DNA from: Salinibacterium sp. G-O1
Lineage (GTDB): Bacteria > Actinomycetota > Actinomycetes > Actinomycetales > Microbacteriaceae
Direction of reading: 5' to 3'
Assembly: GCF_030063305.1 (NCBI RefSeq)
Contig: NZ_JASISV010000003.1
Location: 248,001 to 312,000, forward strand
DNA: 64,000 nt
The number at the start of each line of letters is the position of its first letter. The stretch's first letter is position 1. The notes below the pieces were generated by a model that was given only the letters and a program-made list of their open reading frames with translations, made no database searches and was not told where the DNA came from. A program made the translations under genes and the position numbers. Shown here piece after piece: positions 8,174 through 50,084 of this stretch.

Positions 8174-8959
8174 ATGACCACAGACGAGCGCACACGACTG
8201 CAACTGGCTGCTGACCTGCCAGGGGCTGCGGCGCGCGGTGAGATCGTCGCGTACTACCAGCCGTTGGTCGGGATTGCAGGCGGCGCGGTCGTCGGGGCTG
8301 AAGCCCTCGCCCGCTGGTTCCACCCGCGGCTCGGCCTGATAGCGCCCGACGTGTTCATCCCGCTCGCAGAAGCCGTAGGCAACATCGTGGAGATCGGCGA
8401 CTTCATGCTGGACACCGCGTGCGACTTCGCCGCAATGTGCTGCCGCAGCGGTTCAGATGTTGACATTGCAGTGAACGTGTCGGCCATCCAGTTGCGCGAC
8501 GAGTCGTACGCCGCGCGCGTGCTCGAGACGGCTGCCCGGCATGGCCTTGATCCCCGGCATCTCACCATCGAAGTTACCGAGTCCGAGGTTGTGCACAACA
8601 TCGTCGACGTGGGCGAAAGGTTTGCGGTGCTCCGCGCCGCTGGCGTCACCGTCTCGATCGACGATTTCGGCACCGGCGAATCGTCGATCGAACAACTGCT
8701 GGCCCTCCAGGCGAGCGAGCTCAAAATCGATCGGAGTCTCGTGAAGGATCGCACTGCAAGCTCCAAGACCCTGCTCGCTGCTGTCATCTCCTTCGCCCAC
8801 GACAAGGGCCTTCGCGTCGTGGCCGAAGGAATAGAGACAAGTACGGAGCTCGCTGCGGTGTCAGCGCTCGGAGTCGATCGCGTGCAGGGTTTCCTCACCG
8901 GCAAGCCGATGCCAGCAGAGGAGTTCCTCCAGTTCATCACGGCATCGCGGTCGACGTGA
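8174..8959 (+). CDS. EAL-domain c-di-GMP phosphodiesterase (stand-alone)
   Basis: 261 residues made almost entirely of one EAL domain. The motif is GAEALARW (E43-A-L45), with YYQP at 27-30, NVSAIQL, EVTESE, SIDDFGTGESS, LKIDRSL, VAEGIET and QGFLTGKP. The residues that bind metal and activate water in active EAL enzymes are therefore present, so hydrolysis of c-di-GMP to pGpG is likely. There is no sensory domain or membrane segment. The 3' end overlaps the GTG of the kinase gene (GTGA), so the two are translationally coupled. With the GGDEF gene at 11324 it gives the locus both synthesis and breakdown of c-di-GMP. Confidence 0.92.
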   Translation: MTTDERTRLQLAADLPGAAARGEIVAYYQPLVGIAGGAVVGAEALARWFHPRLGLIAPDVFIPLAEAVGNIVEIGDFMLDTACDFAAMCCRSGSDVDIAVNVSAIQLRDESYAARVLETAARHGLDPRHLTIEVTESEVVHNIVDVGERFAVLRAAGVTVSIDDFGTGESSIEQLLALQASELKIDRSLVKDRTASSKTLLAAVISFAHDKGLRVVAEGIETSTELAAVSALGVDRVQGFLTGKPMPAEEFLQFITASRST

Positions 8960-9807
8960 CGGTCAAGGATCGCAGCATTGTGGATGCTCCGCTGCTGCTC
9001 AATCGCTACCGCCCGCTACAGATTCTCGCCCGCGGCGGGTCGTCATCTGTCTACCGCGGACGGGACGAAATTCTCGGGCGGGACGTTGCCATCAAGCTCT
9101 TCAAGGCGGGAGCCGTCGCAGACGTCAGGACGCAAAAGGAGGAGCTGCGGCTCCTTGCGGGCCTCAGCCATCACGGCGTTGTTGCCGTCATCGACGCAGG
9201 GATCGACGACTCGACCCCCACCGATCCGCGTCCCTTCATCGTGATGGAACTCGTGCAGGGCCACACGATCCGCCAGATCATCAACAAGCGCCAACTTTCG
9301 ACGCGCGAAATCGGCGAGATCGGTTTCGAGATTGCGGAGGTTCTCGAATACATCCACTGGCGAGGAGTCATCCACAGCGACATCACGCCATCCAACATCA
9401 TGCTCGTCGACTACGGCACCCTGCATTCGCGCCCGCGGGCGAGGCTCACCGACTTCGGGATAGCCATCGACACGCTGACTCGCGAAAACCAGGTGAAGGG
9501 CCTCGCCGGCACCATCGCGTACATGAGCCCCGAGCAGGCCGTGAGCAAACCGATCACCCCCGCATCCGATATCTATTCGCTCGGACTCGTCTTGCTCGAG
9601 TGCTTCACCAACGAGTTGGCGTTCCCGGGCAGCCCGATCGAGTCGACCGCGGCCCGGTTGGCGCGTGGGCCCGAGATTCCTTCATCGGTGGATGCCGGTT
9701 TCGCGCCGGTACTCGCCGCGATGACCGAGCGTCAGCCCACAGATCGACCCACCGCTGGCGAGCTGATCGAGGCTCTGCGAAACGCTCTGCGAGTTCCGCA
9801 GGGCTAA
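8956..9807 (+). CDS. Soluble Ser/Thr protein kinase (PknB-like catalytic domain)
   Basis: 283 residues from GTG 8956, overlapping the EAL stop. Kinase motifs are in order: Gly-rich ARGGSSSVYRG (25-35), VAIK (K47), catalytic loop HSDITPSNIML (H140, D142, N147), LTDFGIA (DFG 166-168), AGTIAYMSPEQ activation/APE segment, and ASDIYSLGLV. The HRD Arg is Ser and the usual Lys after the catalytic Asp is Thr; such variants occur in actinobacterial kinases, and all core catalytic residues are present. There is no transmembrane helix or PASTA domain, so it acts in the cytosol. Coupling with an EAL protein suggests that phosphorylation and c-di-GMP turnover are linked (inference). Confidence 0.9.
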   Translation: MTVKDRSIVDAPLLLNRYRPLQILARGGSSSVYRGRDEILGRDVAIKLFKAGAVADVRTQKEELRLLAGLSHHGVVAVIDAGIDDSTPTDPRPFIVMELVQGHTIRQIINKRQLSTREIGEIGFEIAEVLEYIHWRGVIHSDITPSNIMLVDYGTLHSRPRARLTDFGIAIDTLTRENQVKGLAGTIAYMSPEQAVSKPITPASDIYSLGLVLLECFTNELAFPGSPIESTAARLARGPEIPSSVDAGFAPVLAAMTERQPTDRPTAGELIEALRNALRVPQG

Positions 9808-9813
9808 AGCTCG

Positions 9814-10062
9814 CTACAGCCCTTCGGCGTCAAAGCTCTGTTCGACGAGCGGAGTCGCGGTCTCGGCGACCTCGATCTGTGCCCACACCACTGGCATTCC
9901 GGGGGAGAACAGGATGTCCAGCCCGGGGCCACCACGCAGCGGGGGCACGGTCACGTAGCCGCCGCCGGCCTTGATCGCGTCGAGGATGCTGTTCTTCAGC
10001 GCATCGACGGGGGAAGGGAGAAAGTAGTCCTTACCGTCGACGGTAAGCCGGTGAATGATCAT
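9814..10062 (-). CDS. Small conserved protein of unknown function
   Basis: 82 residues, beginning MIIHRLTVDGKDYFLPSPVD and containing GGGYVTVPPLRG and GMPVVWAQIEV. It is a compact, soluble mixed alpha/beta protein with no cysteine. It lies tail to tail with the kinase gene (6 bp apart) and is the only minus-strand gene in the signalling block. I recognise the general sequence style of small Microbacteriaceae proteins but no named function. The start follows a weak AGG run. Confidence 0.6.
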   Translation of the reverse strand: MIIHRLTVDGKDYFLPSPVDALKNSILDAIKAGGGYVTVPPLRGGPGLDILFSPGMPVVWAQIEVAETATPLVEQSFDAEGL

Positions 10063-10212: not shown

Positions 10213-10512
10213 GTGGGATACCTGCACTACGGCGGGGAAGAGTTTGAGTTCGATGATCGGGTTCTCACTCACCTGCAGGTCGTTATCAGCACGAAGCTGC
10301 GTCGCAAAGAGGATTTCTTCTTCACGTGGCTCGTGCCAGCGGATCGCGGAAGCGGCCGCCATGCGATCTGGATCGACAACGGTGTGCCCATCCACTTCTT
10401 CTACAGCGGGTCGCGCAATGTGGCGATCAACCGTGAATGGATCGAGTTGATGGTCGCGGGCGCCAGCAGGGCATCCGGTTTGCTGCTGGCGGATGAGCCG
10501 GCACAGCAGTGA
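10213..10512 (+). CDS. DUF7882-like small protein
   Basis: 99 residues from GTG 10213. A perfect GGAGG at 10201-10205 fixes this start rather than the ATG at 10159. The sequence VGYLHYGGEEFEFDDRVLTHL, then VVISTKLRRKEDFFFTW, resembles a family common in Microbacteriaceae (named DUF7882 to my recollection), which has a tyrosine/acidic N-terminus and a predicted lipocalin-like small fold. The function is unknown. The stop overlaps the GTG of the RsbQ-like gene by 4 bp, so it is the first gene of a three-gene coupled unit with the hydrolase and the diguanylate cyclase. Confidence 0.75.
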   Translation: MGYLHYGGEEFEFDDRVLTHLQVVISTKLRRKEDFFFTWLVPADRGSGRHAIWIDNGVPIHFFYSGSRNVAINREWIELMVAGASRASGLLLADEPAQQ

Positions 10513-11327
10513 CGATCACCCAACCGGCACCCACGAGTGCGGTGCTGCGCAACAACGTCCAGGTGTCGGGCGACCTCGATGCACGTCCCATGGTCTTTGC
10601 CCACGGCTTCGGCTGCAGCCTCGAGTCGTGGCGGGACGTCACCCCGCACTTCACCGAGTCGAACATGGTGGTCACGTTCGACCTGGTTGGCTCTGGCGGA
10701 TCAGACCTTTCTGCCTACGACCGCGGCAAGTACGACTCCCTCCATGGTTACGCCGACGACCTGATTGAGATCATCGACGAGTTGGGTCTCACCGATGTCG
10801 TGTTCGTCGGACACTCGGTGAGCGCCATGATCGGCGTGCTCGCTTCCATTCGTCGCCCCGAACTTTTCGGTGCGCTCATCCTCGTCGGCCCCTCGGCGCG
10901 CTACGTTGACGCCGACGAATATGTCGGCGGGTTCTCTCAGCCCGACATCGACGCGCTGCTCGACTCGCTCGATTCCAACTACCTCGGCTGGTCGTCCGCG
11001 ATGGCTCCGGTCATTGCGGGCAACGCCGAGCGCCCGGAGGTCGGCGAGCGTCTCACCACGAGTTTCTGCAGCGTGGATCCAGCCATCGCGAGCCACTTCG
11101 CCCGCGTCACGTTCCTCTCCGATAACCGGGACGACCTCGCGCGGGTTTCAACTCCGACGCTCGTGCTGCAGTGTTCCGACGACGTGATCGCGCCGCTGCC
11201 GGTCGGCAACTTCGTGAACGAGCACATCCCGGGAAGTCGCATGGTCGTTATGGCGGCCCGTGGCCACATGCCGAACCTGTCAGATCCAGACGAGCTTGCG
11301 GGAGAGATCCAGGCTTTCCTGTCGTGA
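10509..11327 (+). CDS. RsbQ/KAI2-like alpha/beta hydrolase
   Basis: 272 residues from GTG 10509. It matches the RsbQ family closely: AHGFGCSLESWRDVTPHF, DLVGSGGSD, the nucleophile elbow FVGHSVSAMIGVLASIRRPE (S103), LVGPSARY, LVLQCSDDVIAP (acid D224 or D225) and AARGHMPNLSDP (H253). In Bacillus subtilis RsbQ acts with the PAS domain of RsbP to signal energy stress; plant KAI2/D14 are homologous hormone receptors. Here the stop overlaps the start of a PAS-GAF-GGDEF protein instead of a PP2C phosphatase, so the output would be c-di-GMP (inference). All three triad residues are intact. The cap region, with many aromatic and small residues, should form the ligand pocket. Confidence 0.88.
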   Translation: MTITQPAPTSAVLRNNVQVSGDLDARPMVFAHGFGCSLESWRDVTPHFTESNMVVTFDLVGSGGSDLSAYDRGKYDSLHGYADDLIEIIDELGLTDVVFVGHSVSAMIGVLASIRRPELFGALILVGPSARYVDADEYVGGFSQPDIDALLDSLDSNYLGWSSAMAPVIAGNAERPEVGERLTTSFCSVDPAIASHFARVTFLSDNRDDLARVSTPTLVLQCSDDVIAPLPVGNFVNEHIPGSRMVVMAARGHMPNLSDPDELAGEIQAFLS

Positions 11328-12709
11328 CGACCGACGTGTCGTTCGAGGAGCTGTACCAAAATGCGGCGTGCGGTCAGTTGTTGACGGATGCCAGCGGCAT
11401 CATCACCATCGTCAACGAGACGTTCCTCAACTGGAGTGGACGATCGCGCGCCGAGGTTGTGGGTGTGCAGTTTCGTGACCTCCTCACGCGCGGAAGCCTG
11501 CTGTTTTACGAGACGCGTTACCTGCCGGTGTTGCGCCTCAGCGGTGAGGTTCGAGAGGTTGCCCTCGAACTGAGCAAGACCGACGGATCTGTGCTGCCCA
11601 TCCTCGTCAACGCGATCGAGGTGGGAGGATCGACCAGGATCGCCGTCTTCGATTCAACCCAGCGGCAGGATTACGAGCGAGCACTGCTTGCTGCTCGCCG
11701 CGCCGCTGAGGTCTCCGAGGCCCGGGTTCGCGTGCTTCAGGACGTGTCGACCGCCTTCTTTGCGACCTCGACCGAGGAGTCCCTCGCCGAAGCATTGCTG
11801 GGGATCGCCCGTGACGCTTTCAGCGCAACCGACGGTGCGGTCGTTCTGGTCGATGGCGCGGGGTCGCTGCGCATCGTGGCTGGTGCACACCTGCTTGAGC
11901 CGTTGGTTGGGGTGTGGGTCGGGCGTCCCAACCCCACTAAGCCCTCGGCCGAGCAGCTGACGGTAGTCGCAAACCTGCGCGAGGCGGAGGCGCTGTTTCC
12001 CGCGGCAGCCGACATCCTCCGGTCTATCCGGATGGAGGCGCTCACCGCGACGCCGCTCATCGGCGCGAATGGTTCACTCGGTTCCCTGGTGCTGTTGTTC
12101 GGCCGCGAGAGAACGTTCGATGAATCGACCCTCGAGTTGCACCGCGCGCTGGCTCGACAGGCCTCACAGGTTTTCGAGCGCATCCAGCTCCAAACGGAGC
12201 TTGAGCAGATGGCGCTCCACGATCAGCTCACCGGCCTCGCAAACCGAAACCTCCTGCGAGAGCGGCTGTCGCACGCACTTTCGCAGGCCGACCGCACCGG
12301 GCGTGCGATGTCGGTGATCTTTCTCGATCTGGACGGCTTCAAGCCGGTCAACGACGAACTGGGGCATCGTGTCGGAGATGCAGTTCTGCAGATTGTTGCC
12401 AAGCGTGTGCACGGCGTCGTGCGCGAAGCAGACATTGTGGGCCGCTTCGGCGGCGATGAGTTTCTGATCGTCTGCGAAGAAGCGGACGTGGATGTCGCCA
12501 ACCTCATTGCCGAGCGCGTGGTCAGTGCCATCGCTCAACCGATGACGGAATTGCCGGGCGACAGAACGATCAGTGCCAGCGTCGGCGTCGCCTGCTTTAT
12601 GCCAGGTGACCTCGTACCGACCGGCGATGCTCTCGTACGAGCGGCTGACGCGGCCATGTACGCCTCGAAATCCGCGGGTTCGGGCCGAATCACCGCTGTG
12701 CGCGTCTAG
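11324..12709 (+). CDS. PAS-GAF-GGDEF diguanylate cyclase
   Basis: 461 residues from GTG 11324, overlapping the RsbQ-like stop (GTGA). PAS is at ~5-120 (YQNAACGQLLTDASGIITIV and GSLLFYETRYLPVL, like the RsbP-type PAS), with a short coiled linker ~115-140, GAF ~140-285, and GGDEF ~290-461. The active site is GRFGGDEF (376-380), with R367-E-A-D370 exactly five residues before it, which is a product-inhibition I-site. HDQLTGLANR and FLDLDGFKPVND are also canonical, so it should be an active, feedback-inhibited enzyme making c-di-GMP. It is cytosolic, with no transmembrane helix. Gene order implies that the PAS domain is the partner of the upstream hydrolase. Its tail overlaps the cupin gene by 4 bp. 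Confidence 0.93.
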   Translation: MTTDVSFEELYQNAACGQLLTDASGIITIVNETFLNWSGRSRAEVVGVQFRDLLTRGSLLFYETRYLPVLRLSGEVREVALELSKTDGSVLPILVNAIEVGGSTRIAVFDSTQRQDYERALLAARRAAEVSEARVRVLQDVSTAFFATSTEESLAEALLGIARDAFSATDGAVVLVDGAGSLRIVAGAHLLEPLVGVWVGRPNPTKPSAEQLTVVANLREAEALFPAAADILRSIRMEALTATPLIGANGSLGSLVLLFGRERTFDESTLELHRALARQASQVFERIQLQTELEQMALHDQLTGLANRNLLRERLSHALSQADRTGRAMSVIFLDLDGFKPVNDELGHRVGDAVLQIVAKRVHGVVREADIVGRFGGDEFLIVCEEADVDVANLIAERVVSAIAQPMTELPGDRTISASVGVACFMPGDLVPTGDALVRAADAAMYASKSAGSGRITAVRV

Positions 12710-50011: not shown

Positions 50012-50084
50012 GGGCCCTTGGCGCAGTTGGTAGCGCGCCTCGTTCGCATCGAGGAGGTCAGGAGTTCAAATCTCCTAGGGTCCA
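50012..50084 (+). tRNA. tRNA-Ala (anticodon CGC)
   Basis: 73 nt cloverleaf: acceptor GGGCCCT/AGGGTCC (one G-T pair), D-stem GCGC/GCGC, anticodon stem CCTCG/CGAGG with loop TTCGCAT (CGC at 50045-50047, reading GCG), T-stem AGGAG/CTCCT with TTCAAAT. The CCA end is not encoded. GCG is a frequent Ala codon in this genome's genes. Confidence 0.95.

What the first reader, a model, noticed from the sequence alone, without database searches (positions are those of the whole stretch)
10213..12709. RsbQ/KAI2-like hydrolase coupled to a PAS-GAF-diguanylate cyclase
Seen: three genes with 4 bp overlaps encode a small DUF7882-like protein, an intact RsbQ-type hydrolase (S103, D224/225, H253) and a PAS-GAF-GGDEF protein with a complete GGDEF and I-site. 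Known: in Bacillus RsbQ works with the PAS domain of the PP2C phosphatase RsbP; plant KAI2/D14 are homologous small-molecule receptors. Inference: here the hydrolase product or hydrolase itself signals through PAS to set c-di-GMP, a receptor-to-second-messenger pathway with a third, unknown component.
Basis: partly seen in the sequence, partly recalled or inferred. Interest (0 to 1): 0.82.

Follow-up and report, generated by a model that had tools for sequence, protein, structure and literature searches.

The report
RsbQ-gated sole c-di-GMP synthase cluster
Next to an RsbQ-type receptor-like enzyme lies the only recognisable gene for making the second messenger c-di-GMP in this bacterium, and a few kilobases away the only recognisable EAL gene for breaking it down; the receptor-cyclase pair is a known kind, but the gene cluster around it seems not to have been described.

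Summary
The window holds a DUF7882 gene, an intact RsbQ-type hydrolase (S103/D225/H253) and a PAS-GAF-GGDEF protein, with 4-bp overlaps. The core idea is not new: Nadezhdin, Brody & Price 2011 (PMC3183031) described adjacent RsbQ/PAS genes driving PP2C, histidine kinase or diguanylate cyclase outputs. I reproduce that split: of 76 named partners, 40 SpoIIE/PP2C, 18 GGDEF, 18 HisKA. In Microbacteriaceae the pair's hydrolase is in 45 of 249 genomes; 48 of 49 other hydrolase places have a GGDEF gene next door. What looks new is the setting. The own genome (99.95% complete) has one GGDEF gene (this one), one EAL gene (8174-8959) and no PilZ match. Both lie in a cluster with a Ser/Thr kinase, DUF7882 and an unnamed 82-aa protein distantly related to DUF7882. 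DUF7882 belongs to this neighbour cassette rather than to the pair; elsewhere the cassette sits beside phytochrome-GGDEF genes, and some DUF7882 copies beside rhodopsins. Best reading: RsbQ docks on the PAS domain and switches the cell's only diguanylate cyclase. The ligand, the docking, and the roles of DUF7882 and the small protein are inferred.

The parts
8174..8959 (+). stand-alone EAL phosphodiesterase; the only EAL gene found in the genome
   Evidence: Pfam EAL 205 bits; 1 EAL match in the own genome, at this place; 4-bp overlap with the next gene
8956..9807 (+). soluble Ser/Thr protein kinase (STK)
   Evidence: Pfam Pkinase 131.5 bits; a related kinase within 5 kb of 10 of 50 hydrolase places
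9814..10062 (-). SMALL: unnamed 82-aa protein, distant relative of DUF7882, no Pfam or NCBIfam match
   Evidence: no match; 36 close orthologue places (E below 1e-27) in 35 genomes, any match in 53 of 249 genomes; hhalign to DUF7882 prob 70%, E 4.1e-5 (only 0.7% with the smaller alignments); AlphaFold2 beta-beta-alpha-beta-beta-beta
10213..10512 (+). DUF7882 (PF25355), the family of putative CryoRhodopsin transducers
   Evidence: family origin; AlphaFold2 model pLDDT 91
10509..11327 (+). RsbQ-type alpha/beta hydrolase, triad S103/D225/H253
   Evidence: phmmer to RsbQ 1wom E 1.4e-82
11324..12709 (+). RsbP-type PAS + GAF + GGDEF diguanylate cyclase; the only GGDEF gene found in the genome
   Evidence: Pfam; 1 GGDEF match in the own genome, at this place; RsbP-PAS class residues

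Best explanation
An RsbQ-PAS bipartite sensing module coupled to a diguanylate cyclase. The hydrolase (or its substrate/product complex) contacts the Falpha side of the N-terminal PAS domain. The change passes through the helical linker (FDSTQRQDYERALLAARRAAEVSEARVRVLQ) and the GAF domain to the paired GGDEF domains, which make c-di-GMP with I-site feedback. Two kilobases away an EAL phosphodiesterase breaks c-di-GMP down. Since these are the only GGDEF and only EAL genes found in a 99.95% complete genome, this cluster probably carries most or all of the cell's c-di-GMP turnover, so RsbQ would gate global c-di-GMP. The STK, DUF7882 and SMALL genes next door form a conserved cassette that probably regulates or reads out the two enzymes. 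Shown here: genes, domains, triad, class residues, pair conservation, single GGDEF and EAL, linkage counts. Inferred from RsbQ/RsbP work: direct docking and activation by it. Unknown: the ligand, and the roles of STK, DUF7882 and SMALL.
For: RsbQ is the best PDB match by a wide margin, E 1.4e-82 against 7.7e-57 for the next. Pair conservation: 48 of 49 other hydrolase places in Microbacteriaceae; 80 of 80 named loci have a downstream RsbP-like PAS ORF. PAS class residues C10, L13, L48, F55, P62, E72 and P86 (RsbP numbering) are kept in the window; three of the four residues whose loss was null in B. subtilis, L48, F55 and E72, are among them. Output domains of 76 named partners: 40 SpoIIE, 18 GGDEF, 18 HisKA, the published trichotomy. 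One GGDEF, one EAL and no PilZ in the own genome. In 9 of 45 hydrolase-bearing genomes the coupled cyclase is the only GGDEF found. A separate EAL gene lies within 5 kb in 22 of 50 places, DUF7882 in 21, SMALL in 20, STK in 10 (gene calls; by ORFs 23, 22, 20 and 10 with the window).
Against: The fourth such RsbP position, Y59, is R in the window and in 42 of 48 Microbacteriaceae partners (the rest G2, A, T, Q, H), whereas all 59 PP2C and kinase partners have H, so the contact may differ. Positions 53 and 56 also differ (L, Y). The hydrolase is found in none of the 4 other same-genus genomes, so the module is dispensable or mobile. HD-GYP phosphodiesterases and non-PilZ receptors were not searched genome-wide. 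No activity, binding or expression data exist. More than half of the 50 hydrolase places have no separate EAL gene within 5 kb (28 by gene calls; 27 by ORFs; four of the loci are cut at contig ends), so the pair does not need the cassette. Two GGDEF partners lack a GG[DE]EF motif (L102, L107).
Confidence: 0.72

Rival explanations
1. The hydrolase is an enzyme that delivers a product to the PAS pocket, and PAS is the true sensor (Model 1 of the 2011 paper), rather than a receptor that signals by occupancy and docking (Model 2).
For: The triad is kept in 129 of 130 hydrolases; the paper reports that RsbQ triad substitutions are null (discussion).
Against: One otherwise intact pair has Cys for the nucleophilic Ser (L073), and docking residues of PAS are conserved; neither excludes the model.
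Confidence: 0.35
2. The pair is a stand-alone module, and its nearness to EAL/STK/SMALL/DUF7882 only reflects c-di-GMP genes clustering, with no shared pathway.
For: The pair occurs without the cassette in most places (SMALL in 20 of 50), and the cassette without the pair (16 of 36 close SMALL orthologues lie elsewhere, one of them at a contig end).
Against: The two meet too often for chance: genomes looked at hold 1 to 4 GGDEF genes each and 1 to 9, yet 26 of 34 gene-called close SMALL genes lie within 5 kb of a GGDEF gene and 31 of 34 of an EAL gene, against 0 and 0 of 11 weak SMALL paralogues (some of those loci reach only 3.5 kb). The own genome has no other GGDEF or EAL gene.
Confidence: 0.3
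3. The GGDEF domain is mainly a c-di-GMP- or GTP-binding regulator and not a cyclase.
For: Some relatives have lost the GG[DE]EF motif (L102, L107).
Against: The window protein has an intact GGDEF and I-site and is the only GGDEF gene of a genome that keeps an EAL gene.
Confidence: 0.08

Closest known systems
RsbQ-PAS bipartite sensing module (Nadezhdin, Brody & Price 2011, PMC3183031)
   Same: RsbQ homologue directly upstream of an N-terminal RsbP-type PAS domain, helical linker, no DIT motif (by eye), output including GGDEF
   Different: A GAF domain lies between PAS and GGDEF (the word GAF does not occur in the paper's main text); position 59 is R instead of the paper's neutral aromatic; the neighbourhood carries EAL, STK, SMALL and DUF7882; it is the genome's only GGDEF gene
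B. subtilis RsbQ/RsbP (energy-stress branch of sigma-B)
   Same: Closest solved hydrolase (1wom), same triad, same gene order
   Different: Output is GGDEF rather than a PP2C phosphatase
Plant KAI2/D14 receptors
   Same: Same hydrolase family (best plant chain 7f5w, 190 bits, E 4.8e-55)
   Different: Clearly less similar than RsbQ (280 bits); plant partners are not PAS proteins (recalled)
CryoRhodopsin-DUF7882 pairs (PMC12227055)
   Same: DUF7882 beside a sensory gene; the own genome also has a rhodopsin gene right after another DUF7882 gene
   Different: Here DUF7882 is beside c-di-GMP genes and an RsbQ hydrolase, not a rhodopsin
Bacteriophytochrome-GGDEF proteins
   Same: In 6 of 36 close-SMALL places a PAS_2-GAF-PHY-GGDEF gene lies beside the same small genes
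   Different: Light-type input instead of RsbQ-PAS

Membership tests
RsbQ hydrolases | Closest to RsbQ with Ser-Asp-His triad | tested here: met
RsbQ-PAS module | Hydrolase gene immediately upstream of a gene with an N-terminal RsbP-type PAS | tested here: met
RsbQ-PAS module | The nine distinguishing PAS residues of the 2011 paper | tested here: inconclusive
   6 of 9 identical to B. subtilis (C10, L13, L48, F55, E72, P86); 53, 56 and 59 differ (L, Y, R); P62, also conserved, is kept. Mapped from the residue letters in the paper's text, not from an aligned RsbP sequence; the paper itself lists a consensus, not nine fixed letters
RsbQ-PAS module | Direct hydrolase-PAS contact | not testable with these tools
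   No complex prediction is offered
Diguanylate cyclase | GGDEF motif in a GGDEF domain | tested here: met
   Pfam PF00990 142.5 bits; motif in the translation
Diguanylate cyclase | Makes c-di-GMP | not testable with these tools
   No assay
DUF7882 (PF25355) | Match over the Pfam cut-off | tested here: met
   112.9 bits against 27
DUF7882 as CryoRhodopsin transducer | Gene adjacent to a CryoRhodopsin gene | tested here: not met
   This copy is not beside a rhodopsin; the only rhodopsin gene found in the genome is beside another copy

The most novel reading that the evidence does not exclude
DUF7882 and the related SMALL protein are shared read-out or adaptor proteins of Microbacteriaceae sensory systems. 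One orthologue set is devoted to a compact c-di-GMP circuit (one EAL, one cyclase, a kinase) whose input can be exchanged between an RsbQ hydrolase receptor and a phytochrome; other copies serve rhodopsins. In genomes without PilZ, such as this one, DUF7882/SMALL would be a new kind of c-di-GMP effector.
Probability: 0.2. Interest if true: 0.82.

Novelty: new variant of a known kind. Interest (0 to 1): 0.55.

Why it matters
The signal of RsbQ is unknown (the 2011 paper calls the cue mysterious). A genome where the RsbQ-coupled protein is the only GGDEF gene found and one EAL gene sits beside it gives a clean readout: total cellular c-di-GMP would report RsbQ state, with no other cyclase found to confuse it. 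It also links DUF7882, a family put forward as rhodopsin transducers, to c-di-GMP genes, and suggests that light and RsbQ inputs are alternatives on one cassette.

Tried and rejected
DUF7882 as a conserved third gene of the RsbQ operon: rejected; only the window has it directly 5' of the hydrolase among 50 places.

EAL-DUF7882 fusion in L253: rejected; the long ORF seems to read antisense through SMALL between the two (read by eye).

A c-di-GMP riboswitch in the window: none at Rfam gathering score; the only match is a tRNA.

R59 as a marker of hydrolase-PAS co-variation: hydrolase columns 37 (S against D) and 39 (E against N) separate the same groups, but the R59 members are nearly all Microbacteriaceae, so shared ancestry may explain it. 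The hydrolase tree is the quick one, the careful search not finished; it puts the window in a clade of 49 rows (48 GGDEF-type, one unclassified; SH-aLRT 99) and needs three changes for the GGDEF label, with the seven GGDEF-EAL rows labelled apart. One tree label is wrong: L105, drawn as HK, is a SpoIIE protein.

DUF7882 as mainly a sensor-linked gene: not supported. In 89 surveyed loci (86 from 25 genomes, one per genus, mostly +/-3.5 kb, plus 3 own-genome copies; 79 with DUF7882 called) 13 hold SMALL, 4 a rhodopsin, 2 EAL, 1 GGDEF and 0 the RsbQ hydrolase. That survey left out five loci of the same 25 genomes that I already held as hydrolase neighbourhoods (L060, L065, L069, L079, L085), each with hydrolase, GGDEF, EAL, SMALL and DUF7882. 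With them it reads 18, 4, 7, 6 and 5 of 94. Most copies still stand alone.

Left out of counts: the Pfam tally used 76 of 80 named partners, four being cut at contig ends (L106, L109, L134, L142). The motif classes (40 PP2C, 19 HK/other) differ from Pfam by L105 (SpoIIE) and by L109 (cut, counted as PP2C); all 59 have H59 either way. Five of the 18 named GGDEF partners repeat family genomes; without them and the unmotifed ones 13 of 13 have R59. The gene caller missed 2 of the 36 close SMALL genes (L253, L264), hence 34. Four hydrolase loci are shorter than 10.7 kb because of contig ends (L037, L038, L075, L076). The weak-SMALL control has only 11 loci.
Full report
OBSERVATION. The window carries, on the + strand, DUF7882 (10213-10512), an alpha/beta hydrolase (10509-11327) and a PAS-GAF-GGDEF protein (11324-12709) with 4-bp overlaps. 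The hydrolase matches B. subtilis RsbQ (1wom) at E 1.4e-82; the next chain is a bacterial protein at 7.7e-57 and the best plant D14/KAI2-type chain stands at 4.8e-55. It aligns its triad as S103, D225, H253. The cyclase has an intact GGDEF motif and RxxD I-site in the translation. Upstream, also on the + strand, lie an EAL gene (8174-8959) and a Ser/Thr kinase gene (8956-9807); between them and DUF7882, on the - strand, is an unnamed 82-aa gene (9814-10062), here called SMALL. The hydrolase start is the least certain boundary.

THE PAIR IS CONSERVED. The family is Microbacteriaceae: unnamed 'same family' genomes share contigs of equal length with named Mycetocola, Salinibacterium, Herbiconiux and Subtercola records (that these genera belong there is partly recalled). 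In 249 of its genomes the hydrolase occurs in 45 (E <= 1e-40; 24 of 85 genera), but in none of the 4 other genomes of the window's genus. Counting the window there are 50 places; of the other 49, 48 have a same-strand GGDEF or GGDEF-EAL ORF across or at the hydrolase stop, and one second copy (L055) has none. Gene calls put 34 of the 44 junctions that could be measured at exactly 4 bp of overlap; 5 of the 49 were not measured. In public named genomes, 80 of the 80 best loci (of 518 confirmed relatives) have a downstream ORF with an RsbP-like PAS. Pfam on the 76 that are not cut gives SpoIIE/PP2C in 40, GGDEF in 18 and HisKA in 18. By the record titles, 17 of the 18 GGDEF cases are Microbacteriaceae and one is an unnamed actinobacterium (L095).

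PRIOR ART. Nadezhdin, Brody & Price 2011 (PMC3183031; I read the abstract, sections 5, 6 and 7, part 1 of the discussion, and passages) reported 45 RsbQ/RsbP-PAS pairs with these three outputs, direct RsbQ-PAS contact in B. subtilis, and two models of sensing. A 2025 eLife paper (PMC12143880, passages only) models RsbQ at the PAS-linker interface of an RsbP dimer and repeats that the module is coupled to GGDEF cyclases. So the receptor-to-c-di-GMP idea in the finding is already published as a proposal. The full-text library holds 4 papers with RsbQ, RsbP and 'diguanylate cyclase' and 2 with RsbQ and c-di-GMP.

PAS RESIDUES. Mapped by the residue letters in the paper, the window keeps C10, L13, L48, F55, P62, E72 and P86, and differs at 53 (L), 56 (Y) and 59 (R). 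Of the four positions that are null when changed in B. subtilis (L48, F55, Y59, E72) it keeps three. Position 59 is R in 42 of 48 Microbacteriaceae partners (the others G, G, A, T, Q, H) and in 17 of 18 named GGDEF partners, five of which repeat the 48. It is H in all 59 non-GGDEF partners, which I classed by motif as 40 PP2C and 19 HK/other; one of the 19, L105, is a SpoIIE protein by Pfam. Hydrolase columns 37 and 39 separate the same groups. Shared ancestry may explain this; the quick hydrolase tree puts the window in a clade of 49 rows, 48 of them GGDEF-type (SH-aLRT 99), and needs three changes for the GGDEF label.

THE WHOLE GENOME. The own genome (99.95% complete) has one GGDEF match and it is this cyclase, one EAL match and it is the gene at 8174-8959, and no PilZ match. 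The same GGDEF search over the 45 hydrolase-bearing genomes (41, the other 4) finds the coupled cyclase as the only GGDEF gene in 9: G000, G021, G039, G040, G068, G076, G103, G107 and G219. In G113 the only match is a weak one on another contig. Seven of the nine are at least 90% complete. The other 35 have two to nine matches. HD-GYP was not searched.

THE CASSETTE. Within 5 kb of the 50 hydrolase places there is a separate EAL gene in 22, DUF7882 in 21, SMALL in 20 and STK in 10 by gene calls; counted by ORFs and with the window, 23, 22, 20 and 10. SMALL has 36 close orthologue places in 35 of the 249 genomes (E below 1e-27). Compared with the places, 20 lie within 5 kb of the hydrolase. Of the 16 others, 6 lie beside a PAS_2-GAF-PHY-GGDEF phytochrome gene and 2 beside a GAF-GGDEF gene. 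For 8 I found no GGDEF gene in the stretch held or, where the genome was searched, within 5 kb; one of these is at a contig end. Of the 28 phytochrome (PHY) places in 27 of 249 genomes, 8 lie within 10 kb of a close SMALL gene by the coordinates, including G025 and G102, where the RsbQ pair is also nearby. Of 34 gene-called close SMALL genes, 31 have EAL, 26 GGDEF, 29 DUF7882 and 13 STK within 5 kb; of 11 weak SMALL paralogues, none has EAL or GGDEF, 10 have DUF7882 and 1 STK. So one SMALL/DUF7882 set goes with c-di-GMP genes, and SMALL with DUF7882 more generally.

DUF7882 AND SMALL. Pfam received DUF7882 from the CryoRhodopsin paper, which calls its members putative cytoplasmic transducers predicted to form pentamers (PMC12227055, section 13 read). 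The own genome has four DUF7882 genes; one is directly upstream of its only rhodopsin gene, whose helix-C residues fit the D-T-E variant of the CryoRhodopsin motif by eye. DUF7882 is in 158 of 249 genomes, up to 17 per genome, mostly as single scattered genes (its 89 loci leave out five hydrolase neighbourhoods already held, see Tried and rejected). AlphaFold2 models are confident for DUF7882 (pLDDT 91) and fair for SMALL (80.5, disordered tail), with the same order of strands and first helix. Profile comparison supports distant kinship with large alignments (prob 70%, E 4.1e-5; the same alignments in global mode give prob 14%, E 4.5e-4) but not with small ones (prob 0.7%). Neither has a PDB fold match at E <= 0.001.

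MECHANISM. Most likely the hydrolase docks on PAS and, depending on a bound or processed ligand, changes the linker and the pairing of GGDEF domains. This is carried over from RsbQ/RsbP and not tested here. The conserved linker residues across PP2C, HK and GGDEF partners (R145, Y148, E149, L152 in alignment A2) fit one shared relay. The nearby EAL would set the decay. What STK, DUF7882 and SMALL do is open; with no PilZ found, the two small proteins are candidates for the read-out.

VERDICT. Known module, new variant and setting. Searches that found no print on the setting: DUF7882 (only the rhodopsin paper), Microbacteriaceae + diguanylate cyclase + bacteriophytochrome (none), Microbacteriaceae + GGDEF + EAL domain (none), karrikin + diguanylate cyclase (none). 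These cover only the held open-licence library.

Noticed in passing
L089:4998-6310: In the window's own genome a second DUF7882 gene lies directly upstream of the only rhodopsin gene found, a CryoRhodopsin-like pair.
   Followed up: partly
L174, L175, L176, L185, L191, L200, L202: Weak SMALL paralogues overlap a DUF7882 gene by 4 to 8 bp, with no c-di-GMP gene in the stretch held: a recurrent DUF7882-SMALL pair.
   Followed up: partly
L073: RsbQ-type hydrolase with Cys at the nucleophile position in an otherwise intact pair.
   Followed up: no
L102, L107: RsbQ-coupled GGDEF domains without a GG[DE]EF motif.
   Followed up: no
L055: Diverged RsbQ-type hydrolase without a GGDEF neighbour in a genome that also has a normal pair.
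   Followed up: no
G025:C1:1656042-1667366 and G102:C1:203512-215829: RsbQ-coupled cyclase and phytochrome-GGDEF lie about 10 kb apart on either side of the same SMALL gene.
   Followed up: partly
L093, L094, L095, L097, L098, L099, L104, L133, SMALL C-termini: SMALL proteins end in a mostly acidic tail, most closing with Leu (such as DEL, IDLGL, FSDL); the window's tail is disordered in the model. A possible docking strand.
   Followed up: no
window 50012-50084 +: tRNA gene, the only Rfam match in the window.
   Followed up: no
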